Shown here: positions 43,358-63,628 of the stretch, in pieces
Numbering within the stretch: the first letter of the stretch is position 1
Layout of the letters: each line of letters starts with the position of its first letter
Origin: Zymoseptoria tritici IPO323
Lineage: Eukaryota > Ascomycota > Dothideomycetes > Mycosphaerellales > Mycosphaerellaceae
Length of the DNA: 64,000 nt
Assembly (NCBI RefSeq): GCF_000219625.1
Contig: NC_018214.1
Span: 124,001 to 188,000, forward strand
Direction: 5' to 3'
Program-made: the position numbers and the translations under genes
Notes under the pieces: generated by a model
Told to the model about the DNA's origin: nothing
Databases searched by the model: none
What the model saw: only the letters and a program-made list of their open reading frames with translations

Positions 43358-44356
43358 ATGGCGGCATCGCTCAGTGCGAAACTCAACGAATTGCGCGCTG
43401 AGGCTATCACAAAGGATGATCCATCACTCATGGAACAAGCCATTGAGATCGCCTCACAACCAAACTTCAGAATGAGCGTCCAGGACCTGATTAAAAGAAC
43501 CATGAGACGCGCGACAGCAAACGGCGCAACCAAAGTGCTCACGTACCTACTCGATCTCGGCGCCGACGTCGAGGCCGTGCGCAGTCACGAGACCTTTCCC
43601 TGGACGGGTGACCTTGTAGAAAACGACGCCGACTACGATTATAACAAACCTCATATGGACGTTCTGGAGATCCTGGTCGCTCACGGATGGGACGTCAATA
43701 CCTATGATAGCGACCAAGGCGGCACACCTTTACTCTGGTCTGTCCTGCGATATCCTGAGCTGGTTCAGTGGTGCTTGGACCACGGAGCCCGAGTCGATGA
43801 TCCCGACTATAGACCACACGCGTTGGGATACTCTTGCGACCCTCCTCAATTCACTGCTGACGGTACAGAAACTCGCCACTCTGCGCCAAGAGGCCCCTTG
43901 ACAATCCTCGGACGAGCCGCCACAGATGCAAGTGTCGAGACCTTCGAGCTGCTGCGAGCGAGAGGTGCTCCAATGGATCCGCGGACGCTGCACATCGCAA
44001 CGGAATGCGGACGCCTCGATATGGTTCGCCATCTTGTCGATGTCGTCGGACTGGATGTGAACGCGATTGAATACCATCTTGGCGATTGTTGCGCCACGCC
44101 GCTCTGTTACTTGGCGCATCCACCCAGAGGAAATGATGAGAATTACCGCGCAGTAGCCACTTTTCTACTGGAACGCGGCGCCAATCCCGATCTACCTTCT
44201 GGTCTTCCCGGATGTCCCATTATGGACAGTGCCAATCTATGTGCTCAACAATTCCACAGTGAAGTCTTCTTAAATGCGGTGAAGGCGTGGCAGGCAAAGC
44301 AGCAGAGCGATGGAGCAGACGAAGGTGTTCCCGACACGAAGCAAACTGATGTCTGA
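43358..44356 (+). CDS. Ankyrin-repeat protein
   Basis: Single exon, 332 residues, starting at ATGGCGGC after a CA-rich leader. Ankyrin-type helices recur: ATKVLTYLLDLGADVEA, MDVLEILVAHGWDVNTYD, ATPLLWSV-like GGTPLLWSVLRYPELVQWCL, TFELLRARGAPMDPRTLHIA, RLDMVRHLVDVVGLDVNAIE and VATFLLERGANPDLPSG. It probably acts as a protein-binding scaffold. No other domain is attached, and no signal peptide or membrane span is present, so it is likely cytosolic or nuclear. The partner is unknown. It is the last intact gene before the large RIP-mutated element. Confidence 0.88.
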   Translation: MAASLSAKLNELRAEAITKDDPSLMEQAIEIASQPNFRMSVQDLIKRTMRRATANGATKVLTYLLDLGADVEAVRSHETFPWTGDLVENDADYDYNKPHMDVLEILVAHGWDVNTYDSDQGGTPLLWSVLRYPELVQWCLDHGARVDDPDYRPHALGYSCDPPQFTADGTETRHSAPRGPLTILGRAATDASVETFELLRARGAPMDPRTLHIATECGRLDMVRHLVDVVGLDVNAIEYHLGDCCATPLCYLAHPPRGNDENYRAVATFLLERGANPDLPSGLPGCPIMDSANLCAQQFHSEVFLNAVKAWQAKQQSDGADEGVPDTKQTDV

Positions 44357-45262: not shown

Positions 45263-45271
45263 AAGCTGAAC

Positions 45272-45365
45272 TAGTCTCAGAAGCACAGACCCTCTTGGCG
45301 AGCACTAACCTCTTCGAGCGCCTCGCCTAAGAGGGTCTGAGGGCCCAGCAGCGTTTTTGGGTAAT
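45272..45365. repeat. Left terminal inverted repeat of the large element, with internal hairpin
   Basis: The outer 20 bp match the other end. An inner block GGGCCCAGCAGCG, a T run and GGTAAT at 45,341-45,365 matches the inner right end. Between them lies a near-perfect stem, CAGACCCTCTTGGCGAG at 45,285-45,301, pairing with CTCGCCTAAGAGGGTCTG at 45,322-45,339, apart from one bulged base. Confidence 0.8.
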
Positions 45366-46687
45366 GCTGTGTAGCGCCGCGACATCGAAAATTCAAAACT
45401 ACTTTTATCGCATAATTAAGGTATGTATAAGAAGCTACATGTCGATCTAATTGCACTGCTATAAAAATTATGCTGTAATTCCATCGCTGTCGTACGTAGT
45501 AGGGGTATTAGTTTCTAACTAGTATCGTAGCTAGATTCTTATGCCAAAAGCTTAAAATTACTATACCTATGTCTATTGCGCCCCTATATCCGTCGCTAGT
45601 ACTATATTATTTGTCCGCTATAGCAAGACGCTGCCGCGCGCGTTCCTCCTTAGCCTTAATCGCTGCCGCCCTACTCTGCTAATCCGCCAGGTTCTACTTC
45701 GTTAATAGTAGTTAATAAGCTCTTAGTCGTCGGCTAGAGCGACTGCGTACACTCGACTAAGTTGCTATAGTCTCGATACGGGGATGCTGTCCTGTGTTGC
45801 GATAAGTCGACGGCGCTATGCTACGAGGCGCTAGCCGCGTTATAAACAGGTTGTTAACTTGGGCGGGCTATAGATTCCGGGTCGTCCGCCTAGCATCTCT
45901 AGTATTACGTCCGTTATCTAGCCTTATCCCTAGCCTCCCCTCTACGCGCTGTCCTAAACGTAATTCTTATGTCTTATCTATGTAATAGTAGTTAGAGCTT
46001 CCTACATAGTATCCTAAGCCTCTATATCGCGACTGATCGCGGTTGTCGGATAGGCGCCGTACTAGAAGATCGTATATAGATTCGAAGTTTTGTTCTTACG
46101 CTATACGCTCGTCCTACCGCTACGCCTAGCGCTCTTCTTCTAAGTAGTTCCGGAAGGTGCGCAACTTTCGCAGACCTTACTTCGGGTAGCGGTTAACACC
46201 ACGATAGACTAACTAGTCGTCTAAAGAGAAGCATATAGTATCTGGCGAATGTTAGTATAGTTCGGATGTTTGCCTAGGCAGCTAAGGCATGCTTACTAGT
46301 CTCGCTTAATAGTTGTTAATGTTAGTGTTCGAGAGAAGTCTTAGGGGCTCTTATAGGGTTGTTTTGTATGCTATTCGGTCGCCTAGCTACGTAGCGTAAC
46401 ATTAGCATCTCGTTGGTGAATTCTGTTAGCTGCTAATTACTATTCGTACGTAGCTGTCGACTTATCTACGTTGCCGGCCTTTATCTAATAAATAGTTATG
46501 CTAAAGTGCTATAAGAATAGCAATCGCCTCGCGTGTTCTATAATCTTACGGCGAACTCTATTGTTATATAGCAATGTTTAATAAAAGGGAGCCTTACGTT
46601 TGCTAGAGCACTAGTAAATAAGACGGTTCGGGTTATAAAGGCACTAGGGTTGTATTAAAAAGGACTTAACTGTAAGTATGCTTTTAA

Positions 46688-46712
46688 CCTATAGGGCTAT
46701 CCTATCGACAGG
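46688..46712. repeat. 25-nt hairpin motif, copy 1
   Basis: Core AGGGCTATCCTATCG flanked by CCTAT and ACAGG arms. The core itself can pair AGG with CCT around GCTAT. Confidence 0.7.
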
Positions 46713-46836
46713 TAGAATTAGATAGCGATGTTAGGACTTGCAGTCCACTGCCGTGCGCGTTATGTCTCGTCTCTACTCCTATCTTATATAGGAGTCGCAA
46801 TGCGTAAAATCCAATGCTCGCTTAGCAATCGCTCTA

Positions 46837-46861
46837 CCCGTAGGGCTATCCTAACGACGGG
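46837..46861. repeat. 25-nt hairpin motif, copy 2 (compensatory stem)
   Basis: Core AGGGCTATCCTAACG with arms CCCGT and ACGGG-type, so both sides of the stem changed relative to copies with CCTRT and ACAGG. Confidence 0.7.
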
Positions 46862-46959
46862 CTAAGTTCGATGCTGCTCTACTAAAGTCGCAGCGCGATG
46901 CTAGTAAATGCAATAAAAGTACTAAAATCCAAGTTAAAACATCCGCATGCTCCGTAGTG

Positions 46960-48681
46960 CCCTCCTATTATCCGCACCTATCGCTCCGTTTCTTAGCGGT
47001 CGCGGTAGCGACCGCCCTAGCTAGACTCGCGGCGCTTCTGCTTTCCTGCCTTAGTAGACGTATTAGTAAGGTCCTAGGTCGTGTTGTCCTTACCGAGATC
47101 CTTTATACGCGTATCCTAATCCCGAGGCTTGTATACTCGACGAGCTAGTACCTCCGCCGTACGAGGCTTTACTACACTTAATAGCGCAACTAAGCGGCTG
47201 CTGCGGCTACGGAACCTATCGAACATCCCTATCGCTCTAGTCCGGGGTTCCGGTTCTGCGCTAGGATCCGGGCTAAAACCTAAGCCTAAGTTTATGTCCG
47301 AGAAAACACTACCCTTCTTCTTCTTGCTAGGTGTCTTATCTACCTTCGAACTAACTATCCTGCCGTCCTTAAAGGGGGGACGGCTAGACGTCTGGATCCC
47401 CTCGAGATCCTTATCTAAGTCCTCCTGTACAAACTCTAGCGAGAGTTGGGAAGTCTTCTTAGAGCGGCGACGACGTCGGCGGCTTACTAGCTAATCGTCT
47501 ACCTCTATCTCGTCCGCCTAGGGCTACTAGGTAGTGCTCTGCGAGCGGGTAATACGGCGCTAATTACGCGCGAAGTCTTTAGGCTCCCTCCTTAGTTCCT
47601 CTAGCTCCTCCTCTATCCTACTAGTTGTCCTCCGAGGTATCTTCTTCTTCAGACTTGCAGTCTTTATTCTTAGCCTCGAAATGCCCGATCCTATCGACTA
47701 AGCATCTCTAGCATTAGACTCAGATAAGTTCCGGAGCTCTTAATTACGTAGTGTCGACCGACACTCCTCTACTCCATCCTTTAATACGCTCTTAATCCGT
47801 CTAACGTATGCAGCAGTATCGTCGTTCCGGCTAAAGGTAAAGGGAACGCTTAGCATACCTACTATGCGGTTAGTTACCCGGATAGAGTCGTCTAAGGTAG
47901 GATAGGTAACGGAGTCTAGGATACTAGCACTATCGTCGAAGATCTCGCCAATGCGCACCTGCTAGGTAACTCTGTTTAGTAATAACAACGGCTAAGTTTC
48001 TTCTCGCTTGCTACCTTTGCTCGCACGCGACACGCGCTTCTTTACCGGGACTATACTAATGCTGTATAAGTAGTAACTACTATTAAGCAGGCAGTTCGTA
48101 TAAGCGCCGCCGAAGAGGAGAGATTTGCCGTCTAGCGCGGGAAACGTAAAGCAGCCGTTAACCAGGCCTTTCGCGTCTGAAGATAGTCCGCATTAGTTGC
48201 AGCTACGTTAACCTACCTTATCGTCTAGCTCGCCTATTTTATTTGTACCCTTTATAAAGCTAGCTAGGATGGCGCTAAGCTTCGTAGCGCTTCCCTATAG
48301 GTTAACGTTTATGTCGCTACGCAGGCGGTCCTTAATTTCCTGCGGGCTAATAAGCCTCGCCTAGCTTACTAAAGAATCCAGGATAGACTCTAGTTCGCTA
48401 TAAGGGCGACTATTTACATAAGTCGACAGGATAAACTCTCTACATTTTTGTACCGCCGCTCTATCCTCCTATAATAGAGCCTAGTAAAGCTTTCTAATAA
48501 ACTCCGCGATACTCTCCTTCGTATACTCGACTTGCTTACAGCCGAACTAATGCTTCTACAGCTACCTTATAACAGCCTCGTACTCCTCCTAGTCTGTTCC
48601 AGATAGCGCATTACCCTAGCTCGCTAGGCGCTCGAGACTATCGCGGATAATCTTCGCGCGTTTTCCTAGAGTCTTAGACAT
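46960..48681 (-). pseudogene. Cysteine-motif (DUF3716-like) protein remnant, copy A
   Basis: Reading through TAG/TAA stops from MSKTLGKRAKIIRDSLERLA at 48,681 gives a coherent protein frame. A Cys module follows (CGLSSDAKGLVNGC, then FGGAYTNCLLNSS), matching the fungal DUF3716 style of CxxC, GxC and GACxNC. Further downstream are SVTYPTLDDSIRVTNRIVGM and a basic Ser-rich C-terminal part (47,600-47,000). Several expected Cys codons read Tyr, as expected from TpG to TpA change. Function is unknown; the Cys module suggests nucleic-acid or zinc binding. It is a paralogue of copy B, 2.9 kb away. Confidence 0.6.
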
Positions 48682-49604
48682 TTCGGTAGTGCTATAGTCT
48701 CGTTAGTCTTTAGATTGTAAATCGCGGTAAATATTAGGAAGTTATAAGCTTACAATAGCTACTTCTAATAAGGCAGCGTAGTTACGAATAGTAGCCTGCT
48801 CGACGCAAGCGGACGATAGCGGATAGTATAGCGGATAGTATAATAGATAGTGTAATAGATAATGTAGTAGATAATGTAAGGAAGGCAGAAGGGGAAGGAG
48901 GTTAATAAAGGATAGAGAAAGAAGATTAAGAAACGAGGTTAGTAGGGCTGTAGATATACGCAGGTTGCCCTCTATGCAGCTAGCATAATTACCGCTTTCG
49001 AGTCGGCTAGTTAGTGCATTAGCTAGCTCGTGAATTTACTACGCGGCCCCTCCTACGCGTATAACAGCGCATAATAGGTTTGCTGTCGCGCCTTGCACAT
49101 AGGTGTTTAGGGAGCACGATATTACTTATCGTCGCGGTTAGGTTACATAGTTTACTAGGCTTATTTCAGCAATAAGATCTTAGCCGTAAAGTCGGTTATA
49201 TAGCTTATTAGCCTCGCTCCGGTAGTAAGGACTTAGTAGTAACTTTAGCTATTCTAGTAGTACTAGGAATTATAAGGTGTGCGGTATAGCCGGATCTAAG
49301 ATTCATTCCGGTCTACGGTTCAGACCTCGTCTTATAGCTCCTCTTATGTTTACGAGCCTCGAGGCTATATTAGACTCCTTAGTCCGTGTATATGTACTAG
49401 GCCCGCCTACTTTAGCGTAGGCATAATATAAGTCCTAGACTCCGGCGTTATAGCAGCTCGGATGATAAGTATAATACGGATAAAGAAGCTGCGCTCCTGT
49501 TTATAACACTACTAGGTTTACGCAACACCTAAGTAATATAAGGCGATAGCTAATAGGGATACTAAGGTTTAATTCGAAGAATGTATCTAGCAACTTGCTA
49601 TCGA
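48682..49604. other. Spacer between duplicated modules
   Basis: RIP-mutated sequence upstream of copy A. It includes short tandem repeats close to TAATAGATAGTG near 48,826-48,880 and segments resembling 51,480-51,740 upstream of copy B (for example the tataacagcgc stretch). No separate gene was recognised. Confidence 0.5.
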
Positions 49605-49629
49605 CCTATAGGGCCATCCTAACGACAGG
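49605..49629. repeat. 25-nt hairpin motif, copy 3
   Basis: Core AGGGCCATCCTAACG with arms CCTAT and ACAGG. It lies 2,917 bp from copy 1. Confidence 0.7.
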
Positions 49630-49754
49630 TGCGAACAGACCTTTAATAACGGGCTTGTAGTCTATTGCTAATTAGCATGTCGTGTTAGAGCGACTACCGT
49701 TCGTAAAATCCAAGGCGCAATGCGCTAAACAAATGCTAAGAAGCGGTCGCTAGT

Positions 49755-49779
49755 CCTATAGGGCTATCCTAACGACAGG
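49755..49779. repeat. 25-nt hairpin motif, copy 4
   Basis: Core AGGGCTATCCTAACG with arms CCTAT and ACAGG. It lies 2,918 bp from copy 2 and 150 bp from copy 3. Confidence 0.7.
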
Positions 49780-49869
49780 ACGGCAGCATAGCAGCTACGT
49801 AGGTAATAAAGCAAAACGCGAATCTAAAATAGCAGTGCAGGCGCTATAAATTAAGCAAGCTCTAGTGTC

Positions 49870-51470
49870 TTAGTGTAGCTATCTAACTACCGCTTACGGC
49901 GGCGATCACTCTTGTCTACTTTGTTGCTCCTACTAGGCCTTATAGTACCTATAGGTACGGACTCTATAGTAACGTCTCGGTCCCCTCCGGCGTCGACTAT
50001 CTCCTCGTCTGAAATTTGTCGCGGCTTGTAGACCCTCCGCCTAGGCGGCTGCGAGGCGCGAGGCTAGGAAGGCTGGGTTACTATGCGACTCTTATTGCGA
50101 CTGCTTAGCAAGCTACTAAAGATGTTGCTTATTATTAAAGCTTACTTCTTCGCTAGCGTAGTCTCCGGCTCGGGGCTGCTAAACAGGTCGGTAAGTGCTA
50201 GTTTCTTCCTTCCGGATTTCCGGGCCGAAGGGACGACTAGATCGTCTTTATCTTCGACGTTTATTTCTCTAAAGCTGCTAGGCAAATTCTTTCGATCCGA
50301 GCGGCGCCTAGAACAGTCCTCGTCGATAGGAACCCTCCTGCCTTAAGTTAGTCGCTCTAATCTCGTGCTCCTATACTGCTTACGCTCTTAGACCTTAGCC
50401 TTCGGCATGCTAAACACTAGTACAGAGTCTTTAGATCCGGATAAGGACACCTGTCTCTCCTCGGCCGCGGCTATCTTAGTTTAGTCTCGAGCTATAGCGG
50501 CATTCCTAATAGCAGTCCGACATGCTTCTGCAGTCTTAGCCGCTATGCTTTCTATCCGACCGACGTAAGCCTCCGTAGTATCGTACTAGCTAAAGACGAA
50601 AGGAATGTTAAGTGTACCTACTATGTAGTCTTCTCGTAGGATAGAGTCGTTCGAAGTAGGATAGCTAATAGCATCTGGGACACTATCTTTGTCGAAGATA
50701 TCTGCAATGTTAACTTCGGCCAGGACGCGTCTAAGTAATGCTAATAGCGGATCGTTGCGCCGTCTAGTCGACGTATTAGCCGTGTTTTTAGATGCTAGCC
50801 TGTCGTAAACTCGCGATAACTTCCTTCTGCTAATGCTACATCCCTTCTTATTGCCGTCTAGTAGGCAGTTAGTACACGCGCCCGACTAGAGCTTGGACAA
50901 ACTATCCGGCGCCGGGAATATATAGCAGCCTTTAACAAAGCCTTTCTAGTTATCGTATAGACTGCATTAGTCGCAGCCGCGTTAACTATCCTTCTCCTCT
51001 AGCTCGCCTATGCGCTCGGCACCTACTATAAAGCTAGCTAGGATCGCAGAAAGCGAAGTAGTACTTGCATATAGGTAGAAATCGTTACGGCCGCGCATAC
51101 GCGTAGCGATCTTGTCCCGGGGAATAAGCTTCGCCTAGTCGGCTCGGCTGTCGAGGAGAAGCATAAGTTCGGTGTGCGGTCTGCTAGAAGCGTGTAACCT
51201 AGGTATAAATCTCTTAAGTAGATCTAGTATAGCACTATCCTCCTATGTAAGGACGCTATAAAGCTTAACGATAAACGCTATTACCTTAAGCTCTAATATC
51301 CGTATTTTTAGCTAGCTAAACTAGTTCGCCTATATCTAGATGCATGCCGCGTTATACTAGTCTTAATTAGTGCCTAGTAGGGCTTCGCCAAAGTCGGCTA
51401 GTCGCTAGAGACCCGAGAGGTTTCTGCCGCTCGTAGGAGTGCTTATAGTAAGCTAGTATTCGAGTTCGCG
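49870..51470 (-). pseudogene. Cysteine-motif (DUF3716-like) protein remnant, copy B
   Basis: Paralogue of copy A. The best-preserved stretch, near 50,990-50,860, reads GFVKGCYIFPAP and SGACTNCLLDGNKKGCSIS, with an upstream CxxC in which one position is now a stop. It retains the cysteines that copy A lost. The C-terminal part (50,346-50,083) is Ser/Lys-rich and partly open, with segments such as SARKSGRKKLALTDLFSSP. The start codon is not clear. In-frame stops are TAG/TAA, as expected for RIP. Confidence 0.6.
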
Positions 51471-51779
51471 TACGTTCGCGAAGGTAGGTAATAGAAGAGA
51501 TAGTTAATTAGTAGATAAAGTAGACAAGAGAGTAGATAAGGAAGTAGATAATAAAGTAGAGTCGAGATGTTGTTAGTAGATAGAAGAGTTCCGAGTAATA
51601 ATGTCGATAGGGCGGTAGATATACTAGGAGGCACCTATATAGTTAACACAATTAATGCCCGTGAATTTCGGTAAATCAGCTGACGATAGCAGGCGCATAA
51701 CAGCGCCCTACTACGCCCGGTTTGCTCCCGTGTAGCACGTAGCGACTAGCGAAGTAACTAACATTACTCTACCTCGCCT

Positions 51780-54700
51780 TGTTATAAAAGCTCTAATTCG
51801 TATCCGTCTATCGGATCCTAGGATAACATAATAAGTCTAGGTGTTAGGTCGGTCGCTACCGCTTATTGTAAGTAAGGGTCCGTCCTTAGGTCCGGAAGCT
51901 CTATGCTAATAGACAATAAGGGCTGGTCGGCCTGTATAATCTGTTATCCTTTAACTACTATATTCTTATTAAAGCGTTCTAGACGGCTAACATTCTTAAC
52001 TAGAGTTACTAGGTTCTTAACACCTATAGCATACAGGTCTATAGCGTAAAACTGGGCTACTACGTTAGGATCCGGATCGACTTCTTTAGTCTTTAACGTC
52101 TTGTCCTAGTATGCCGCTGCAACGGCATGCACCTCTTTAACTAATTTTGGGGACGTGTGCTTTGTGTTTGTAGACTCCCTAAAGCTAGCCTCTATAACCT
52201 CTCGCAGATAGCTAGTATGCGTTGCTAAGAGGGTTGCCTCTTCTAGTTAATTTTCGACGTCGAATGTCCTATTACGGCGGCTACTAATAAGAGTCTTTAG
52301 GTATCGATTAAGGAACTCGTTTGCCCGGTTAATCTCGAACTAACTATCCTCGGCACCCGCTATGTTTACGAACCTATTCGCTAGTATCGCTCTTTGTAGC
52401 ACCGGATCTAACGCCTTAGAATTAGTTAGCTATTTTATCTATAGTATAATAAAAGCGTAATTCTTGTAGCTGCGTATATAGAAGATTAGGATACAGCGGT
52501 TAACGACTCGACGTAGCAGGCTAATGTCCGCATATTTAACAGCCCGGCTAAGTATATAATACGTCTCGATAATATACAGGAATCGGACATAGTTTCTCCG
52601 CTCTTCGTTTCTATCGATCCGGGTAGCTGCCTTTTTAGTCGCCTTTGCCTTCTTCCCCTACTGCTTCTTCGAAGAGTACGAATTCTTTGCCTTCTAGGTG
52701 TCAGCTTTAATAGTATCGGGTTCTAGGCGACGAGTAGATAGCGAGAACACCTTCTCGTACACCTTTCCGACTAGACCTATAAAGCCGTCGGCTAATAGCG
52801 CCTAGATGTAGTTGGATATAATATGCCTCTTAGGAACTACCGGGTCGATTTCTTTGTATACGAATGCTAGTACCCTTGTATTAAAGCTGTCGAGTGTTAG
52901 TCGTTCTAGGTAGCTATGCGGCGCGTGAAATAATAGACATATCTTCCGCTCTATTATCTCCCGGTATACTAAGAGTAACGATTTAGCCTAGCAGCCCTCT
53001 CTGCTGTTAAAATTGTTCTCGATTGCCTATATTAGACACATCTTAAGGAAGAAGAGCCTAGGCAATAGCAGTACCTATTACATGCGGTTAAAATCGTCCT
53101 TATTCTCCCGGGACTCCTTTAGCTATATCCGCATGTTGCTTATAGAGAGCTGATTGCCGTACATTAGTAGAATATACCTAGAGGGGTTATACGCACTACC
53201 TATAAAGTCCTCGACCAGCCGTCGAACATGCAGAACGTCGTCCTTAGCACGTTCTCCGTCTATAGGTAGTCGATTTCGAGTACTAGGGGGCTAGTCTCGA
53301 CTAGTAGGAGGCGGATTCCGTAGCGTAGGAAGGCGGTTCTACGAGGTAGGCGGCTAGTATTATAAGCTAGGAGGCTAACTCTATAAGGTAGGCGGCTAGT
53401 ACTATAAGCTAGGAGGCTAACTCTGCAAGGTAGGCGGCTAATATTGCGAGCTAGGAGGGCAGCTTTGCGAGGTAGGCGGCTGATATTGTGAGCTAGGAGG
53501 GCAGCTTTGCAAGGTAGGCGGCTAATATTGCGAGGAGGGGGGCTGAATTTGTGTGCCGGGACGATGGTTATTAGCTACAGGCGACTAATTTAGAGGAGCG
53601 GACACTTAGGTCTGCCTAGTAGAGGGCTAGGTCTAAGTAGTAGGAGGGCGTTCGTAGCAGTCGAAATCACTAGGGCGGCAGATCCAGTCCGCGTTCTATC
53701 CTTTAACGGCCTGTTCGTACAATTCCCTAAGCTTAAGTTGCTCCTTTAGTATATTCTCTATAACGTTATAAGTGCCTTCGGTCGTACCCTCTTGTTCGTA
53801 GATTAGATTTATAGTAGTACTAATAGTTTTCTACTTTACTATACGATTAAAAGCCGGGAATTAAGGGAAGCCCTTTACTTTAGTCTAGTCGATGCTGTTA
53901 GGGTTAGCTTCGCTACCGGTAGCGGTATCTCTACTAATACTAGGGTCCTAGCTAACATTCTTCTTCTTCTTCGGTTTCTTTTTTAAAACAGAATTGTTAG
54001 ATTCGACACCGAATGCCTATACAACGTCGGCTAGATATACCCTTACTATAGCGCTTACGATTAAGTAGAGTAAGATTACCTTCTACTAAGCGTCGTGCCG
54101 GTTGCCCGGGCTATCTAGGATATCTTGTAGCTAAAGCGGCCTGTCCTCTCGGAATAGTTCTTTCTTTAGGCCTAAGCATAGCACCTCGATGCTCTTAAAC
54201 TATTTTGCGGTAGTAACATGTTTTAGGACGTCCCGCCTACCGAAGCTATACTAGCCGACGCGGGCAAAGTAGTCTAGGTTGTCGAATATACTATAGGTAA
54301 GGTTAGACCGGCCGAATGCCTTAATACGACCGGCAGCTAGGTCGTAGAGCATCCGGTTGTAACAGTATATACTCTTCGGGTATCCGCATATACCTAGTCT
54401 AGCTAGGACCGCAAGAACGCGACGTTTAACACCTTAACTCTGTAGGTATACTCCTAACTGCATAGCGAACTAGTTCCCGGATCGAGGATGTCTTATGCGC
54501 AGAAGCATACTAGAAATAAGACTAATGCAGCGGAGCATTAACTTAGAGAGATCCTAAGTTGCCGGCAAGCCTAAGAGCTCCTTTACGAGAGCCTAAATAG
54601 ATAGGACGTACTAACCTATAGCTGCTACCGCGTCTCTGTAATCTAGTTCTTCTGCGGGCAGTTTTCTATCCTAAGACCCGAATTCCTATATAGACTTAGC

Positions 54701-55142
54701 AATAGAACCTATACGTGCTAATATTGCTTACCTTCCGTCCCTTTAGATCCTCGAGCTCTTTCGCTAGACTCGCAGTACTTAGCTACTTACTATTAGACAT
54801 ATATAGTGCAATACACTCTACTACTTTATCCTCCTACAGAATCCATACTAACTTTGCCGCCCTAGTAGCCGCCCGCTCGCCCTAGTTAGGTATGTTCTAT
54901 TCTTTCTTAGTTATTACATAAAGCGTTAGGAAGTCCTCGAACGACAGGTGCTGCCCGCGAATAGTCTGTAGTATGAAGTCTACTTTCTCGCGAGCGGACT
55001 TCGAGTCGCTATGCTAGTTGTTCCCTCTCTTCCTCCTAGTCGGCTTAGGTTTCGTCTGCTAGCTAGCTTTAGTCGTAGGTAGCGGCGAGCCCTCGGGCGA
55101 ATTAGATAGCGACTAGGGGGCAGGTAGACGAGGACTACGCAT
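51780..55142 (-). pseudogene. DUF6589-like protein remnant, candidate transposase of the element
   Basis: From MRSPRLPAP at 55,142 (reading through stops) come KVDFILQTIRGQHLSFEDFL and later, at 52,700-51,960, the most recognisable part: YYILSRAVKYADISLLRRVV, DPVLQRAILANRFVNIAGAE, FEINRANEFLNRYLKTLISS and SYLREVIEASFRESTNTKHT. These resemble the fungal DUF6589 family, common in repeat-rich fungal genomes. Assignment as the transposase is inference from size (about 1,100 codons), position and family habit. The frame at 55.1 kb differs from that at 52.5 kb, so introns or indels lie between. All in-frame stops I read are TAG or TAA. Confidence 0.6.
53345..53540. repeat. 42-bp in-frame tandem repeat within the DUF6589-like remnant
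   Basis: GGTAGGCGGCT starts at 53,345, 53,387, 53,429, 53,471 and 53,513, exactly 42 bp apart, with degenerate units on both sides. 42 bp is 14 codons, and the unit lies in the same frame as the conserved DUF6589 segment. It would encode a Pro/Ser-rich 14-residue repeat (PPTSQSCPPSSQY). Confidence 0.8.
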
Positions 55143-55399
55143 ACGGCGAGAACTAGAAGCTAACTGTTATTAATCTATATTATAAGATATTAATATTAAC
55201 TTAGCTTAAGATAAGGTTAACGACAGTGTTAACTAATGTTAACTAAGAGCCTAGTAGCTAAAAATACACTTATAACTTAGCATTCTTAGCAAAACAAACC
55301 ACCTAGCGCCGACTACCTCTTCTCTCTATTTAGCTTATCTACATAACTATTAATCTACCTAAGTCGATGCCGCTAATAAACCCCGTTTACGACCCGCTT

Positions 55400-56668
55400 C
55401 CTACCTTAAGATGTTTCCGTAGTTATAGGCGACTAGGCTACTTCGGAGGATGCTAGAGAAACAGGAGTAGGCGCACGAGAGCCTCGACGATTAGGATCTA
55501 ATTCTATGCCGAATCTACGCACTAGCGAGGCTCGGGCGACAATAGGACTAGAAGCCGCGCTCTTGCCCTTCCGAGAGCCTACCGCCGTAGGGCTAGGAAC
55601 TACCGTAGGAGGTAGAGGCTAGGCGCTAGCAGATAGGCCGGGAGTAGGCAGAGGAGGAGCTTTCGCCTTCCCTCGGCGGCGCTTAGAACTAGTAACGACT
55701 AAGGAGGTAGGCGATACCGGGGAGGGTATACAAGCAAGGACCGAACGAGCACTACTAGTAGTAAAGGCGACAATACGAGGGTCCGGAGCACTAGCAGACC
55801 TTACTTCCTAAGAGGCTGCGAAACAATCCCGTTCTCGACTAGAAGAGGCCTCTTCTCGTCGGAGCCGCTAGCGCTAGCGCTCCTCCTAGCGCTCCCTCTC
55901 CCGACCCTCGCGCTTAGTCGTAAGCTCCTATAGCCGCTAGGCTTTAATAGACTCTACGACCTTACGTAGGGTCGACAACTGCAGTGCTAGCATGTCGCAC
56001 AACTTAGAAGAGACTACGAAGTCGACACCTACACAGAGTCCCTAGATCCGGCTATAGCTAAAATTAGGTAGCGCGTCCTCCACACCGTACACTTTAGCGA
56101 GGTAGTTAACTATATACGAAGGCAGTAGAGACCCAGGAACTCCCGGAAAGATAGCGTTGCTATAGTATAACTAAGCGGCTCCGGACTCCTATTTAATTAG
56201 ACTATCGCGGATCGACTTAAGGTATAGCCGGGTAATGCTTGCTGCCGTACAAGTACCTAGATTAGTTGCCTATTCGAGCATATAATCCGAAGGCAGAGCG
56301 GACGCCGGCGAGCAGATATCGTAATAGACACGTCCTACTACCGGCCTAGGTACCTCGGAAAACAACTTAAGTGCCGCAACGCGGCGACAAGACGGTAGAA
56401 AGGACGTACTGCTTAGCGGACAAGCGTTAACAAACTTCTAGACATATCTATCTATCTTGTCGCGCTTCTGCTAATTTGTTAGTTTACCCTTCTTTTTCTT
56501 TGATTAGCTAACCTAAAGAGGCTTATCGACATCTAAACTAGCGTCTAACAGGCAATCTATGTTAGCGTTAGAGCTCGTAGGCGTTACGGTATCGTCGTCT
56601 ACTTAGCTCTGCTATCTTATAGGGACCTAAGAGTCTAGCGGCCTTTGCACAACCCAATTACTAAGCAT
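55400..56668 (-). pseudogene. Unknown ~430-residue protein remnant of the element
   Basis: One continuous frame from MLSNWVVQRPLDS at 56,668 to about 55,400, broken only by TAG/TAA codons and with no frameshift. Readable parts include FVNACPLSSTSFLPSCRRVA, VPRPVVGRVYYDICSPASAL-like sequence, AIFPGVPGSLLPSYIVNYLA, LCDMLALQLSTLRKVVESIK, a charged helical stretch (TTKREGRERER) and a Ser/Pro-rich tail. The family is not recognised. It sits between the helicase and DUF6589 remnants on the same strand. Confidence 0.55.
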
Positions 56669-56759
56669 TTACAGATTATATAGGAACGTAAACGAACTAG
56701 CTCCCTATTTTCGACTATCTCGGACTACGCGGCTAGCACGCTAGATAATAGTACGCATA

Positions 56760-58720
56760 GTGCCGTTTATAGCTAGTCGGTACTGCATAATACGTTTAAT
56801 ATTAGGTAAGTTAACCCCTAGGCTAAGCGCCTTAGTAGCTAGAAGGATGCGGATGCGGGAGTTGGGCTTCTAGAACTCTCGGATAACATTTGCCTAAGTC
56901 CTCCTTACGGTCCTGCTATAGTAAGTCCTTACAAGCTGGTATACTTCGTCCGAACTTAGCTAACTAGGATACCTTACTTAGATATAGGCCCGGAGACTAG
57001 CAGCAGCAGCATAGATGCCGGCATAGCTATTAATAAAGACGACCGTCTTCTCTACGCTCTAAGGTCTAGTAACGCCGTCCGGGCCGACTAGGTCTACGAG
57101 CAGATACTAAAGCGCCTGCTAGTTCGTTAGCATCCCGTCCGGAATAGCACAATACCGCATCGATATCTCTAGCCGATCGATCGGATCGCAAATAAGCTAA
57201 GTGTCCAGGTCGAACCCGGCCGCCTCCTAACATTTGAGCAGAGTAGACGCATTAAGTATTGCAGAGCAGCCGTAAAACTTCACCTACTTGTGAAGTATAG
57301 TCCGGAGGTTCTTTAGCTAGGTATACTATTTCCGGAATCCTCCTCCCTTAATGCCCTACTAGTAGACGAGATAAAACTTATCGTAGACGAGTATTCCTAG
57401 CCTTTTCCGCATGTCGGTTCTTATTATAAGCTTCCGGAACTAGGACTATATAGCTATCTCTAGAGACAATATTAAGTAGGTGCACCTGCTAGAATACAGG
57501 AGTTTCTAGTTGTTTGTTTGTTTGTTTGTTTGTTTGTTCCATTTACGTCCTTTCGGAGTCCAAGACTATGTAGGACGGCCTTGCCCTAGAGGCAAGGCAG
57601 TAGATCTATTTACAATTAAATTCTTTCGGTATTCTTTAACCTTAGGGGAAACCCCGTGCCTAAGGCAGGACCTACAAGCAGAATCTGCCGAAGGACTTTA
57701 AAACAGCGCAAGACAAAGGAAATCAAACGAGTGTTGCAGCCCAAGGCTGCAGAATTTTCGCGCCAAGCTTTTGCAGAATTTTCAGCGGATCCTTCCGCTT
57801 CGTATATACGCTGCGAATTCGAAAGAGATGCAGCGCAAGGCAATGCAGCGCAAGGCGATGCAGCGCAAAGGCGCAAAAAGCAGCTGTCCAACTCGCTGCC
57901 TTCTCTTGTCCTTAATATGCCTTTGTGGTATCGTAGTAGTAGTTCTATCTACGACAACGTAGGTTAATTGTAGAGTTGTAGATTCCACCGAGTTCTAGCT
58001 CTTTAAAGTGTATGTATGCTTCCTTTCGAGGGCGACGACGTCTCTAGGGACATGCGATTTCGATTCGGATTTCGAGGAGGTGCGCGTATAGGATAGAGTG
58101 GACTGCTTCTTCTCGTTCGTAACGTAGAGGGCTGTTCGTACGAATCGTGCCGTTGTTCTGTAGCTTGTATTTCGAGGCGGATTTCGAGAAGGATTTCGGG
58201 CGGATTTCGAGAGGTTTTCGAGGAGGTTTCTTCCAGACTGTCTTGGTTTCCCTTCCGAGGAAGGTACTTACGACGGCCACCGCGTGAAGGTGCAGTCTGT
58301 TCGGCCGTCAGTTTCTAGTTGTCCGCCGTAGTACTAGCCTTCGTATTATGTGTTAGTGCAACTAGCTTGCCTCCTATACCTTCGATCCTTTTAAACTGTT
58401 CCCTGCTAATCTAGTTTAAGGGCAAGATTAGGATCGACATCTTGTTACAGATAATAGGCTACACCTAGAAGACGAGGCTCTTGCCTACAGACGTAGTAGC
58501 GATCTAGATAAGATCTCGGTTGTTAAACAGCAGCTAGTAGAGTGCCCGGACCTATAGCGGGCGAGCGTAGTAGGGAAGGAGGAGTCGCACTGCCTACTAA
58601 ACTAAATGCATCTGCTAAGCGGTAGTTATAGGTAGCCCGCTATCGATAGGGACAGGCTCGTCGATCGCCTAGTTAATTGTATTGCGTACCTAAAGAAACG
58701 CCCGCCGGCGCGATAGCATA
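56760..58720 (-). pseudogene. RecQ-like superfamily 2 helicase remnant, split by a retroposon
   Basis: Motif I reads IATTSVGKSLVF (about 58,490), followed by PLN*ISREQFKRIEGIGGKL with a RIP stop. After the 0.8-kb insertion, motif II reads LVYDKFYLVY (about 57,400), a mutated DE-box followed by FRK and YGCSAILNASTL. Motif IV is TVVFINSYAGIYAAAASLRA, and motifs V-VI are ILLATKALSLGVNLPNIKRI with QYRLAING (about 56,800). This order fits RecQ-like helicases seen beside fungal repeats. Stops fall at probable Trp and Gln codons. The true gene probably starts nearer 59,300. Confidence 0.7.
57514..58309 (-). mobile_element. Un-RIPped ~0.8-kb retroposon with (CAAA)n tail inside the helicase remnant
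   Basis: Identical 13-bp direct repeats AGTTTCTAGTTGT flank it (57,501-57,513 and 58,310-58,322). On the minus strand it ends in about six CAAA units, as retroposed LINE/SINE-type sequences do. CpA and TpG are common here, unlike the surrounding block, so it arrived after RIP or escaped it. It contains a 15-bp unit ATGCAGCGCAAGGCA in three copies (57,826-57,872), hairpins such as CCTTGCC/GGCAAGG, and repeated ctcgaaatccgcc units on the minus strand. I recognise neither a reverse transcriptase nor clear Pol III boxes. Confidence 0.75.
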
Positions 58721-59650
58721 AATAGACTGCTAACTATGTCTTTAGGTATCTCGAGGGTTAGCTTGCCGTTAGCGCCTACCGGATTAAGCTAGGTAGAACG
58801 CACGGCTTCCGGGTTAGTGTTTTGCTATTATGCATTATGTAGCGCCTAAAGTACGACCTTCTCTATGCCTGTGTTGTTAACCTCTACTAGTATACGCAAT
58901 AGAGCGGCGGTTATCTTAGCTACCTATTCGCGTCGCTTGGCGAAATAGATCCTTATATCCCCTCTACCTAGGACCTTCTATATAGACAAATCTTCCTTAG
59001 ACGCCTTAACGGATGCTTGTAGACTACCCTAAAGCCCTCCTATATCGTTAAAGTTACTAGGTACGTCCGAAAGCCCGCTATTACTACTATCGTCGTCGCC
59101 TAGGCACCTATTAAACTAGTCGAGCAGGGCAGCTATACGCTCGATATCTATACTAGGAGACTACTCTTACGATCGATTTTCCTCGACGACCGACGTCCCT
59201 ATACTGTTCTTATCTTGTCCGGTACTGCTAGCACTAAAGCTGCTCGAGATATCGCTAGCGCAAGATCGGGGATTAGCGACCTTTAGTTATCTACAGCAGG
59301 CCTTTAGGGGAGCTATTAGAGAATCGGGGACTATAACTTTGCAGAGGGAGCGCGTATAGTTCTAGTAGATATAGTTTTGTTAGTATTAGTCGCTAACTGC
59401 GACCTCTAATAGAGCTCGCGTCCTACTATATAAACGCGTCGTTAAGATGCGAGGTACGCGAGCTCTATTAGAGGTCGCTACTAAGGAGGTATAGACAAAT
59501 AGATAGCAGGAGGTTGTTTAGCAAGTCTAGTTGTACAAAGTTATAGTATCCGAAATTTGAATATTATACCTAGTGTCGCTGTCGTCGCTACTAGCCGTTA
59601 TTAATGCTACACTGTATGTTAGTAGTGTTTACATACTAATACTGCGCTCT
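58721..59650. other. Element interior toward the right end
   Basis: RIP-mutated sequence that probably holds the helicase N-terminus and its promoter. No further motif was recognised, apart from the perfect inverted repeat at 59,399-59,478. Confidence 0.45.
59399..59478. repeat. Perfect 23-bp inverted repeat near the element's right end
   Basis: GCGACCTCTAATAGAGCTCG plus CGT at 59,399-59,421 is exactly complementary to 59,456-59,478, with a 34-nt loop. The arms contain no CpA or TpG, so further RIP cannot alter them. Confidence 0.85.
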
Positions 59651-59753
59651 ATTACGAAAAAAGCGCGTCTGGACCCTTAGACTACCTACAGTAGGGCCAG
59701 CTGCTTGCAGCTAATAGGCCCGTTAAGCGAGGTGGTCTGAGCGCCTGAGACTA
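59651..59753. repeat. Right terminal inverted repeat of the large element
   Basis: Read on the minus strand it starts TAGTCTCAGGCGCTCAGACC and includes the inner block GGGTCCAGACGCG, a T run and CGTAAT (59,676 down to 59,651). The segment between them also folds on itself (GGGCC, AGCTGC / GCAGCT, GGCCC), although its sequence differs from the left hairpin. Confidence 0.8.
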
Positions 59754-59762
59754 AAGCTGAAC

Positions 59763-60219: not shown

Positions 60220-63200
60220 ATGATCACACGGACACGAATGGCCTTGCTGGTCTTCTTCACCTTTCTAGCATGCCTCCGATCATCGCTTGCGCAAACAAGC
60301 CCAGTGTCGACAGATAAAGACGGAAACAGATACGTTCAATACACCGGCGAGGATGGCCCTGTGCTGCTGGCAGACAATCGCCGCCCATCGCTCTACACGG
60401 CAGATTTTGGTGACTGCATGGGAGGAAGCACCATCAACGTCACTCGGTTCGATGCGTCGTACTACAAGGACAACATGACGGTGCTCTTCCATCTTGCGGG
60501 AGAGACTGGCGTGAAGAGCGATGTGGTTATGCTGTACATTGGAGTCTTTGCGTATGGCGAGAATCGATTCGATCTCGTCTTTGATCCGTGTAATGCGAAT
60601 ATTGCAAGGTATGTTGTCGAAGCACTCTAGTACCTGCCATGCTGATCTCAATCCCAGCCTGTGTCCGATGAACGGCACCGTACCGATCGAAGCAAGTGGA
60701 ATCATTCCAGTATCGCAGGAAGACGTCGCTGGAATTCCTCCCATCGCTCTCTCGATTCCCGACTTTGAAGGCGAGGCCATTCTTCGCATCTTCTCCAACA
60801 CTACCCGTCAACAAATCGCATGCTATACAGCCGTTGTCACAAACGGCAACTCCTTCAGTCATCCCGCTGCGGTCGGGTCGGTTCTCGGCATCTTCACATT
60901 CGTTGCAATGATTGCATCTTTCGCTACGGCAATCTACGGAACGGCCGTCCCGACGATGAGACTTCACTACGCTCACTCGCTGTCCGTCGGAGTGGTCTTC
61001 GCAGTCTGGCATCATATCTTCTTCACCGGCGCTCTTTCTGTCAACTGGCCGTCCGTCTTGGTGGCATGGTGGAGCAACTTTGCGTGGAGTGGTGGCATGA
61101 TCTACAGTTCGACCATGCAGGACAGCATTAACAAGTTGATTGGCAACAACATTGGCAATACATCGCATGTGGGAGCTGCCCAGACTGGTGGAGACAATAC
61201 GGATGTTGGAGGTGGATTCGACACGAGTCTGCTGTACAAGAGAGTGGTGACTTGGGGATCGAATCATCCAATGGTGGGCGATATTGCATCCAAGATCTTC
61301 GACCGCGACTCCGGCATCGTCACCAAACGCGATATCGTGCAGCGAACGCTGGAAGCCCGCCAGGCACCAATGTCTGGTGGGTCGACTCTCGGCACTGCAG
61401 AACAGGGCTACCATTGGTACGGAGACCCGGTGCCTGAAGGACTGCCTCTGCCTGGAAACTTCTCCGGGTTCGCCGGCACTCTCGGACAAGAAGGCATTCG
61501 GGCGAGCAATGCTTTCATGACTGGTTTCCTCTGGTTCATCATTCTGTTGGTGATATTGATTGCCGCTGTAATTGCCTTCAAGTGGTCACTGGAAGGTCTG
61601 GTCCGCTATAAGAAAATCAAGCAAGACAGACTTCAATTCTTTCGGGACCACTGGCTCGGCTTCACTGCTGTCATCACACTGCGCATTTGCTACATTGCGT
61701 TCTTCGCGATGTTGTTCCTCAGCATCTTCCAGTTCTCGTACGAGTCGTCGAGTGGCGTCAAGGCCATCGCCGGGATCGTCTTTATCGTTTTCTTCGCCGG
61801 CATGCTGGGCGTCGCTAGTTACGCATACTGGTATCGGAGACATACCGTGGATTTTGAATCTCGTCCACAATTCGAGCGTAAGACGCTTCTGGGCAAGATT
61901 CCTTGGTTTGGTTTCAAAGACGCACCGCTTCAGCCCAGCCGTGGCGACGCCGTCGCGCATGATGGCAACTCAAACATGGACGAGTCAGCCGCCAAGCCGC
62001 GCTTCTGGAAGCGTCTCAGCACAGGACCTGCTCTCGTACATACCACAGTGAACAGCATACATGACGACGAAGACTACACTCGCAAATTCGGCTGGCTCGC
62101 CGCTCGATTTCGCCGTACACGCTGGTGGTTCTTTGCATTCTGGCTGTGCTACGAATTTCTCCGTGCCATCTTCTATGGCGGTGCGTCCGGATTCGCTCGA
62201 GCTCAGGTCTTTGGTCTTCTTGTCATTGAAATCGTTGCGGCGGGCTTCATCATCTGGATGCGACCATTTGAAGGCCAGCGACTGAATCTTCTGGTTGTTT
62301 ATGCGTTGAGCTTCAGCAAGGTTATTACTGTCGGTCTTTCCGCTGCATTTGACGTGGAGTTCAATTTGCCACGTATTGCCACGACGGCACTGGGCATAAT
62401 CATAATTGTCGTGCAGGGCATACTTACCATCCTCACAATGATCGCCATCGTCGTCGGATCCGTCAGCTCCTACATGTCCCTCACCCGAAACCAGGAAGGC
62501 GACGACTTCCGGCCGAAAAAGTGGGCGGGCATCCGCGAGAAGTACTTCAACCACCTGGACAAATCCGTCAAGGACCTTCCCGGCGAATCTCGCAAAGTGA
62601 AGAAGGAACGCAAAAAGCAAGAGAAGCTGGCCAAGAAGCTGGCCAAAACCCGACCGTCATTCGACCCGGAGGCAGATCCTGAAAAGGTCGGCTTTACTGT
62701 CCGTTCCATTCGCCGCAACCCCAAAATCGAGGACGAAGATGAAATTTTCGTAAACGAAGTCAATCCGTCCACTTTTGACATCCCGATCAATATCTCGACG
62801 ACAACTTTGCCTCAACCTTCAGCCACCCCGATTCCTTCCGGCAGCCGGCCAGCCAGTCGTCCCGTCTCCCGCGCTCCAAGTGTGCGTAGCGTGAGCTCCG
62901 GTAATTTGCCCTTCGGGGCAAGGGCTCATCGGATGAGTTGGAGTATGCGAGACTTTCAACAGCAGCAGGAGCTCGACGCAGAGTATGCTGGACCAGCCAG
63001 TCAAGTCTCGGCGGAAGACTTGAAGAGCATGCCAAAGGCTCTACCTAAAGACGTTGTTGATAGAGACCGTGCCCTGCAGGAGAGGGACAGCACGCTGAGC
63101 ATCCGAAGCTCCAGAATCAGAGTGAAGAAGCGAATGAGTCGTGGCGCGGAGGTCGAGCCATCAGTCGACGGCGCCACCGCTAATGCCGAGGAGAGCGACA

Positions 63201-63628
63201 CTGCGCTCGACATTGCTTCTCCTATGTCGTCCGTCACACACCTCCCGATCTCCGCCGTTCCGCCGCCGACGATGCGTCCTCGCGCGGGCACGGGTGGTTC
63301 AACGAGGAATGTGTCTTCAGGTCTCCTACTCCCTGTTGCAGGATTGGGACCGAGTGCTAGTCATAGCGCCGGATTGGCGAGTCGAAGTAATTCGATGAGA
63401 GCGAGGAGTGGGAGTGGGAGTGCAGGAGGGTATGGATTGGTGGTTGAGGAGGAAGAGGAAGAGGAGGAGGAGGATAGAGGGGTCACGCCGGTGAAGGACG
63501 GGTTGAAGAGGAAGAGTGGTGTTTTGATGCCGCAGGTTGAGGAGGGGGAGGAGTGGTTTCAGCCGATGGGGAAGGGTGAGGGGATGGAGGTGAAGGGGAA
63601 GGGGAAGGAGAGGGTTGTTGAGGAGTGA
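60220..63628 (+). CDS. Flc/TRP-like multi-span membrane protein (flavin carrier / calcium channel family)
   Basis: Exons 60220..60608 and 60658..63628 give 1,119 residues; the 49-bp intron (GTATGT...CAG) joins CNANIA to SLCPMNG. It has a signal peptide (MALLVFFTFLACLRSSLAQ; a later start at 60,238 is equally good), then an ML-like luminal domain with paired cysteines (FGDCMGG, FDPCNAN). About nine hydrophobic spans follow, for example SVLGIFTFVAMIASFATAIY, FIILLVILIAAVIAF and TALGIIIIVVQGILTILTMI, separated by WWSNFAWSGGMIYSSTMQDS and FWLCYEFLRAIFYGGASGFA. The last 380 residues are cytosolic, Lys- and Ser-rich. The family (Flc1-3, Pkd2) acts in ER/wall maintenance and calcium flux; the exact paralogue is not assignable. 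Confidence 0.92.

What the first reader, a model, noticed from the sequence alone, without database searches (positions are those of the whole stretch)
45263..59762. Apparently undescribed 14.5-kb DNA transposon with 9-bp target duplication
The exact direct repeats AAGCTGAAC sit directly against matching inverted termini (17 of 20 outer bases), and the RIP-like composition changes at the same points. Three independent boundary signals agree. The size and multi-gene content exceed ordinary cut-and-paste elements, and I cannot match the termini to a named family.
Basis: partly seen in the sequence, partly recalled or inferred. Interest (0 to 1): 0.88.

Follow-up and report, generated by a model that had tools for sequence, protein, structure and literature searches.

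The report
Helicase-carrying Academ-like fungal DNA transposon
The block is a real, mutation-silenced jumping gene of a wheat-infecting fungus, one of about twenty related insertions that each made a 9-base target duplication, and it looks like a new, large member of a known but little-studied transposon group that pairs a transposase with a helicase.

Summary
The element (45272-59753) has 17/20 matching inverted termini and an exact 9-bp duplication. Of 22 loci of the family read at both ends, 22 have 9-bp duplications, 21 exact. A terminus pattern hits 89 places, its reversed control 1. Usual length is ~13.7 kb; this copy is 14,482 bp because an 809-bp insertion splits its helicase. The 11 copies aligned differ almost only by transitions (5405 of 5436), in independent patterns: near-identical copies spread first, RIP came later. 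Read through stops, the minus strand shows DUF6589, a RecQ-like helicase and two DUF3716 genes. DUF6589 and helicase occur together in 18 of 18 long copies and in 10 of 10 two-ended copies of a sister family. A 9-10-bp duplication plus a helicase is what is reported for AcademH (PMC10045372). Verdict: real transposon, AcademH-like, probably a new family of a known kind. Not shown: that DUF6589 is the Academ transposase; an empty site in a sister strain; that no existing library lists it.

The parts
45263..45271 (.). left copy of the 9-bp target duplication, AAGCTGAAC
   Evidence: sequence; repeated exactly at 59754
45272..45291 (+). left terminal inverted repeat, TAGTCTCAGAAGCACAGACC
   Evidence: 17 of 20 complementary to the right end; same ends in other copies
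47742..48638 (-). left DUF3716-type gene (paralogue), approximate extent of the paralogous region
   Evidence: tblastx self-match of copy C2_3572, 45% over 195 codons, carried over to window coordinates by offset; weak DUF3716 hits in that copy
50501..51412 (-). right DUF3716-type gene (paralogue), approximate extent; DUF3716 hit at 50832-50984
   Evidence: Pfam PF12511, E 2.1e-5, 24.8 bits over a cut-off of 22; 4 stops in the 51 codons of the hit
52118..54553 (-). DUF6589 gene, the candidate transposase; Pfam hit at 52157-53182
   Evidence: PF20231 E 6.3e-29; tblastn matches of DUF6589 proteins over this range; 12 stops in the 342 codons of the hit
53284..53551 (.). array of 21-bp repeats inside the DUF6589 gene region
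   Evidence: the repeat finder family D1
56720..58560 (-). RecQ-like helicase gene: Helicase_C 56720-57058, DEAD 58321-58560, interrupted by the insertion below
   Evidence: PF00271 E 6.2e-10 and PF00270 E 2.5e-4; in copy C2_3572 both in one frame and RecQ the best match; 5 and 6 stops in the window hits
57501..58309 (.). secondary insertion (809 bp including one copy of its 12-bp duplication AGTTTCTAGTTG) with a GTTT/TTTG run at one end; splits the DEAD part of the helicase
   Evidence: gap in the other 10 aligned copies
59399..59478 (.). subterminal hairpin, 23-nt perfect arms with 34 nt between
   Evidence: the repeat finder I1; both 13-base core arms found in 8 of 11 copies, one arm only in the other 3
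59734..59753 (-). right terminal inverted repeat
59754..59762 (.). right copy of the 9-bp target duplication

Best explanation
One copy of a ~13.7-kb cut-and-paste DNA transposon family of the Academ type, helicase-encoding branch (AcademH-like). Inferred mechanism: the DUF6589 protein is a DDE-type transposase that recognises the TAGTCTCAG... ends, cuts the element out and joins it to target cuts staggered by 9 bp; the RecQ-like helicase opens or processes DNA during excision, integration or repair. Shown: the ends, the 9-bp duplications, the linked DUF6589 and helicase domains, the spread of near-identical copies, short derivatives and ~567-bp elements with the same kind of ends, and later independent RIP that broke the genes. 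Inferred: catalysis by DUF6589, the helicase's role, and any role of the two DUF3716 genes.
For: 22 of 22 loci with 9-bp duplications, 21 exact; sister family 10 of 10 exact; 7 of 8 short relatives with 9-bp duplications, 6 exact. DUF6589 plus Helicase_C in 18 of 18 long copies and 10 of 10 two-ended sister copies, and in one sister copy with a single end found. Helicase RecQ-like: NCBIfam recQ_fam E 1.4e-16 (below its curated cut-off) and E. coli-type RecQ structures first in the PDB. PMC10045372: AcademH makes 9 or 10 bp duplications, AcademX 3 or 4, and the difference seems related to helicase versus nuclease. No MULE domain in any of the 18 long copies and no Helitron_like_N in any of the 22 loci, though both are detected elsewhere in the genome. 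The P-element and Hermes transposases head the structural second look, weakly.
Confidence: 0.8

Rival explanations
1. DUF6589 elements are a transposon superfamily of their own that happens to share a helicase and a 9-bp duplication with AcademH.
For: No sequence link to Academ could be made here; DUF6589 is of unknown function in Pfam and no paper I could search names it (0 papers).
Against: The combination of helicase and 9-10-bp duplications is what is reported for AcademH.
Confidence: 0.12
2. A Mutator-like (MULE) element; these also duplicate about 9 bp (recalled).
For: Duplication length; many MULE domains in the genome (50 matches).
Against: No MULE match in any of the 18 long copies, although RIP-damaged MULE domains are found elsewhere; one match lies in the 35.7-kb composite that has no DUF6589. 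No MULE hit in the six read-through frames of the window copy.
Confidence: 0.03
3. A Helitron, as helicase-bearing repeats of this species were called in 2014 (PMC4522978).
For: Helicase; 5' TA and 3' CTA ends; a subterminal hairpin; the paper lists TA, hairpin and CTRR for two families.
Against: Inverted termini and 9-bp duplications; Helitron_like_N found at 12 places, none in these elements; the helicase is RecQ-like.
Confidence: 0.01
4. Chance repeats round a RIP-affected region, or a segmental duplication.
For: None beyond the short length of the termini.
Against: Same ends and duplications at 22 loci with different flanking 9-mers; pattern control 89 to 1.
Confidence: 0.005

Closest known systems
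AcademH (Academ superfamily; Kojima 2020, Mob DNA 11:15, not held; known here from passages of PMC10045372 and PMC10799480)
   Same: TIR-bounded DNA transposon with a superfamily-2-type helicase gene; 9-bp duplications; the group is reported from Ascomycota
   Different: Relationship of DUF6589 to the Academ transposase not tested; two DUF3716 genes and a length of ~13.7 kb, which I cannot compare with published members
Styx (IS3EU element of the same species, PMC10853768 passages)
   Same: Large multi-gene DNA transposon of Zymoseptoria
   Different: 7,927 bp, four different genes, searched with 6-bp duplication and 36-bp TIR
MULE
   Same: About 9-bp duplication (recalled)
   Different: No MULE domain in the 18 long copies
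Helitron
   Same: Helicase, TA...CTA ends, subterminal hairpin
   Different: TIRs and 9-bp duplications; no Helitron_like_N domain; RecQ-like helicase

Membership tests
AcademH | 9- or 10-bp target duplication | tested here: met
   22 of 22 loci, 21 exact
AcademH | helicase encoded in the element | tested here: met
   Helicase_C in 18 of 18 long copies; RecQ-like
AcademH | Academ-type DDE transposase | tested here: inconclusive
   DUF6589 with conserved YDN and GDQ motifs and a later E; no Academ reference held; fold match weak
AcademH | terminal inverted repeats (recalled as a feature of the group) | tested here: met
   17 of 20 bases; pattern census
AcademX | nuclease gene and 3-4-bp duplication | tested here: not met
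   9-bp duplications; no nuclease family in the six read-through frames of the window copy at E <= 1, which RIP damage could hide
MULE | MULE transposase domain (PF10551) | tested here: not met
   0 of 18 long copies, 50 matches elsewhere or in the composite
Helitron | no TIR and no duplication; Rep/Helitron_like_N domain | tested here: not met
   TIRs and 9-bp duplications; PF14214 at 12 places, 0 in these elements

The most novel reading that the evidence does not exclude
DUF6589 proteins are the transposases of a lineage of large helicase-coupled transposons that is a separate branch of Academ or distinct from it, and this family carries two duplicated DUF3716 proteins as accessory transposition or anti-silencing factors, so that two domains of unknown function gain a role.
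Probability: 0.2. Interest if true: 0.6.

Novelty: new member of a known kind. Interest (0 to 1): 0.42.

Why it matters
It ties the uncharacterised domain DUF6589 to a mobile element with well-supported ends and duplication length, and to a RecQ-like helicase in 28 of 28 two-ended long copies of two families. The 11 aligned copies are an unusually clean record of a burst of near-identical insertions followed by independent RIP. It also shows how helicase-bearing elements with TIRs might be misfiled as Helitrons.

Tried and rejected
Reading it as Styx: rejected, since size, genes and duplication differ. Homologue search with the RIP-damaged DUF6589 piece: none at E <= 0.001. Search of solved structures with the window's damaged helicase piece and with the undamaged helicase of contig C18: nothing; the less damaged copy C2_3572 hit RecQ. 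First structure model, pLDDT 37.5: not used. Foldseek with the second model: 0 matches at E <= 0.001. Mapping original reading frames by stops shared by all 11 copies: 3 stretches of at least 180 codons (190, 199, 207), while 2 of 5 column-shuffled controls also gave such stretches (185, 243); not informative. Ends of the undamaged DUF6589/helicase locus on C18: no convincing TIR with duplication in 12 kb. The three host DUF3716 loci gave no tblastn match to the element at E <= 0.01, so recent capture of these genes is not supported. The idea that the 2014 'Helitron' families are these elements: possible, but real Helitron_like_N domains exist at 12 places and I could not see the paper's coordinates; left open. 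Empty site in sister strains: not held, not run. Rows dropped: of 8 short elements one (L074) had no recognisable right end and is counted as a miss; one sister copy (C11:1083328) with only one end found is left out of the two-ended count.

Full report
Setting. The window is G000:C5:124001-188000 of an assembly of 39,686,251 bases in 21 contigs. A DUF6589 protein of the same assembly is 100% identical to one named Zymoseptoria tritici ST99CH_1E4. That the assembly is the reference isolate IPO323 is recalled from its size and chromosome number, not tested.

Observation. Termini and 9-bp duplication are as described. Composition is RIP-like from about 100 bp inside each end. A DNA search with the left end gave 40 matches, starting at query positions 30-43, the terminus being position 43; the right end gave 36. 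I fetched ten other long copies; with the window copy, 11 of 11 have the same ends and 9-bp duplications, 10 exact and 1 with one mismatch. Ends of ten further loci: 10 of 10 exact; one more: exact. Together 22 of 22, 21 exact. Of these 22, 18 are long (13.4-28.4 kb, 11 of them 13,631-13,767 bp) and hold DUF6589, three are short derivatives (1,371, 421 and 123 bp) and one is a 35.7-kb composite without a DUF6589 match. The 9-mers differ from site to site, with no strong motif among 32 tabulated from both families. A terminus pattern with one mismatch allowed hits 89 places, its reversed control 1. The matched lists are lower bounds, as the tool scores only the best candidates.

Related elements. 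A sister family, 11.6 kb in 7 of 10 two-ended copies (the other three 17-20 kb), has nearly the same last 20 bases; 10 of 10 have exact 9-bp duplications. Of eight short elements examined that share the left end, seven (566-570 bp) have a recognisable right end and a 9-bp duplication, 6 exact and 1 with one mismatch; one is unresolved.

Content. The domain hits are all on the minus strand. In the window copy, read through stops: DEAD 58560-58321 (E 2.5e-4, below its cut-off), Helicase_C 57058-56720 (6e-10), DUF6589 53182-52157 (6e-29), DUF3716 50984-50832 (2e-5). In the less damaged copy C2_3572 DEAD and Helicase_C lie in one frame, RecQ is the best match of the helicase, and two weak DUF3716 hits, both below the cut-off, lie in two regions that match each other at 45% over 195 codons. 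In the assembly DUF6589 matches 41 places and Helicase_C 117. Sorted by position: 18 of 18 long copies and 10 of 10 two-ended sister copies hold both; an eleventh sister copy with one end found also does (C11). Of 9 other DUF6589 places 2 have a Helicase_C match within 7 kb. DUF3716 matches 11 places: 8 in 7 of the 18 long copies, 3 undamaged host genes, none in the sister family. In the window copy the hits contain 12 (DUF6589), 5 (Helicase_C), 6 (DEAD) and 4 (DUF3716) stops, all TAA or TAG.

Nested insertion. The window copy is longer because of 809 bp at 57501-58309 with a 12-bp duplication and a GTTT run; similar sequences sit at other places in copies C6_2413 and C13_933. It falls inside the DEAD domain, which is continuous in C2_3572.

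History. Among the 11 aligned copies 5405 of 5436 differences from the column majority are transitions; C-to-T changes (both strands) fall at CpA 1808, CpG 1608, CpT 167, CpC 43. 29 ungapped columns contain a transversion, mostly in a single copy; 2420 are two-state transition sites, and 56% of 20,000 random pairs of the 1334 informative ones fail the four-gamete test. Inference: near-identical copies spread, and each was then hit by RIP separately.

Comparison. PMC10045372 (passages) states that AcademH makes 9 or 10 bp duplications and AcademX 3 or 4, and relates this to helicase and nuclease. PMC10799480 (passages) says AcademH is found in Basidiomycota, Ascomycota and Mucoromycota as low-copy elements; the 18 long copies here are more than that suggests. 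The original AcademH paper is not held. MULE and Helitron_like_N domains are detected elsewhere in this genome despite RIP, but not in the long copies. PMC4522978 (passages; [quoted passage not shown] The last may be the short elements here, and the 'Helitrons' may include these families; I could not check.

Verdict. A real transposon, AcademH-like by structure, most likely a new family of a known kind; moderate interest. A score above that would need the DUF6589-Academ link or a role for DUF3716 to be shown.

Noticed in passing
L068/L069 (G000:C18:113000-125000): A DUF6589 gene and a RecQ-like helicase gene without stops in their matched parts, facing each other tail to tail about 6 kb apart; the DUF6589 protein is identical in strain ST99CH_1E4. 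Still active or host-used; no ends found.
   Followed up: partly
window 57501-58309: SINE-like insert with a GTTT/TTTG run and a 12-bp duplication, little RIP-affected; relatives inserted at other places of two other copies.
   Followed up: partly
G000:C9:1888508-1900108 and nine similar places: Sister family, typically 11.6 kb, with DUF6589 and helicase, 9-bp duplications and no DUF3716 match.
   Followed up: yes
L073, L075-L080: Short elements of 566-570 bp with the same kind of ends and 9-bp duplications, probably moved by the long elements.
   Followed up: yes
G000:C5:2181416-2217161: 35.7-kb composite with the family's two ends and an exact 9-bp duplication, no DUF6589 match but a MULE match inside.
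   Followed up: no
window 53284-53551: 21-bp repeat array within the DUF6589 gene region, in the part whose length varies between DUF6589 proteins.
   Followed up: no
window 43358-44356 and 60521-63628: The nearest long ORFs on either side of the element match ankyrin repeats and a TRP ion channel.
   Followed up: no
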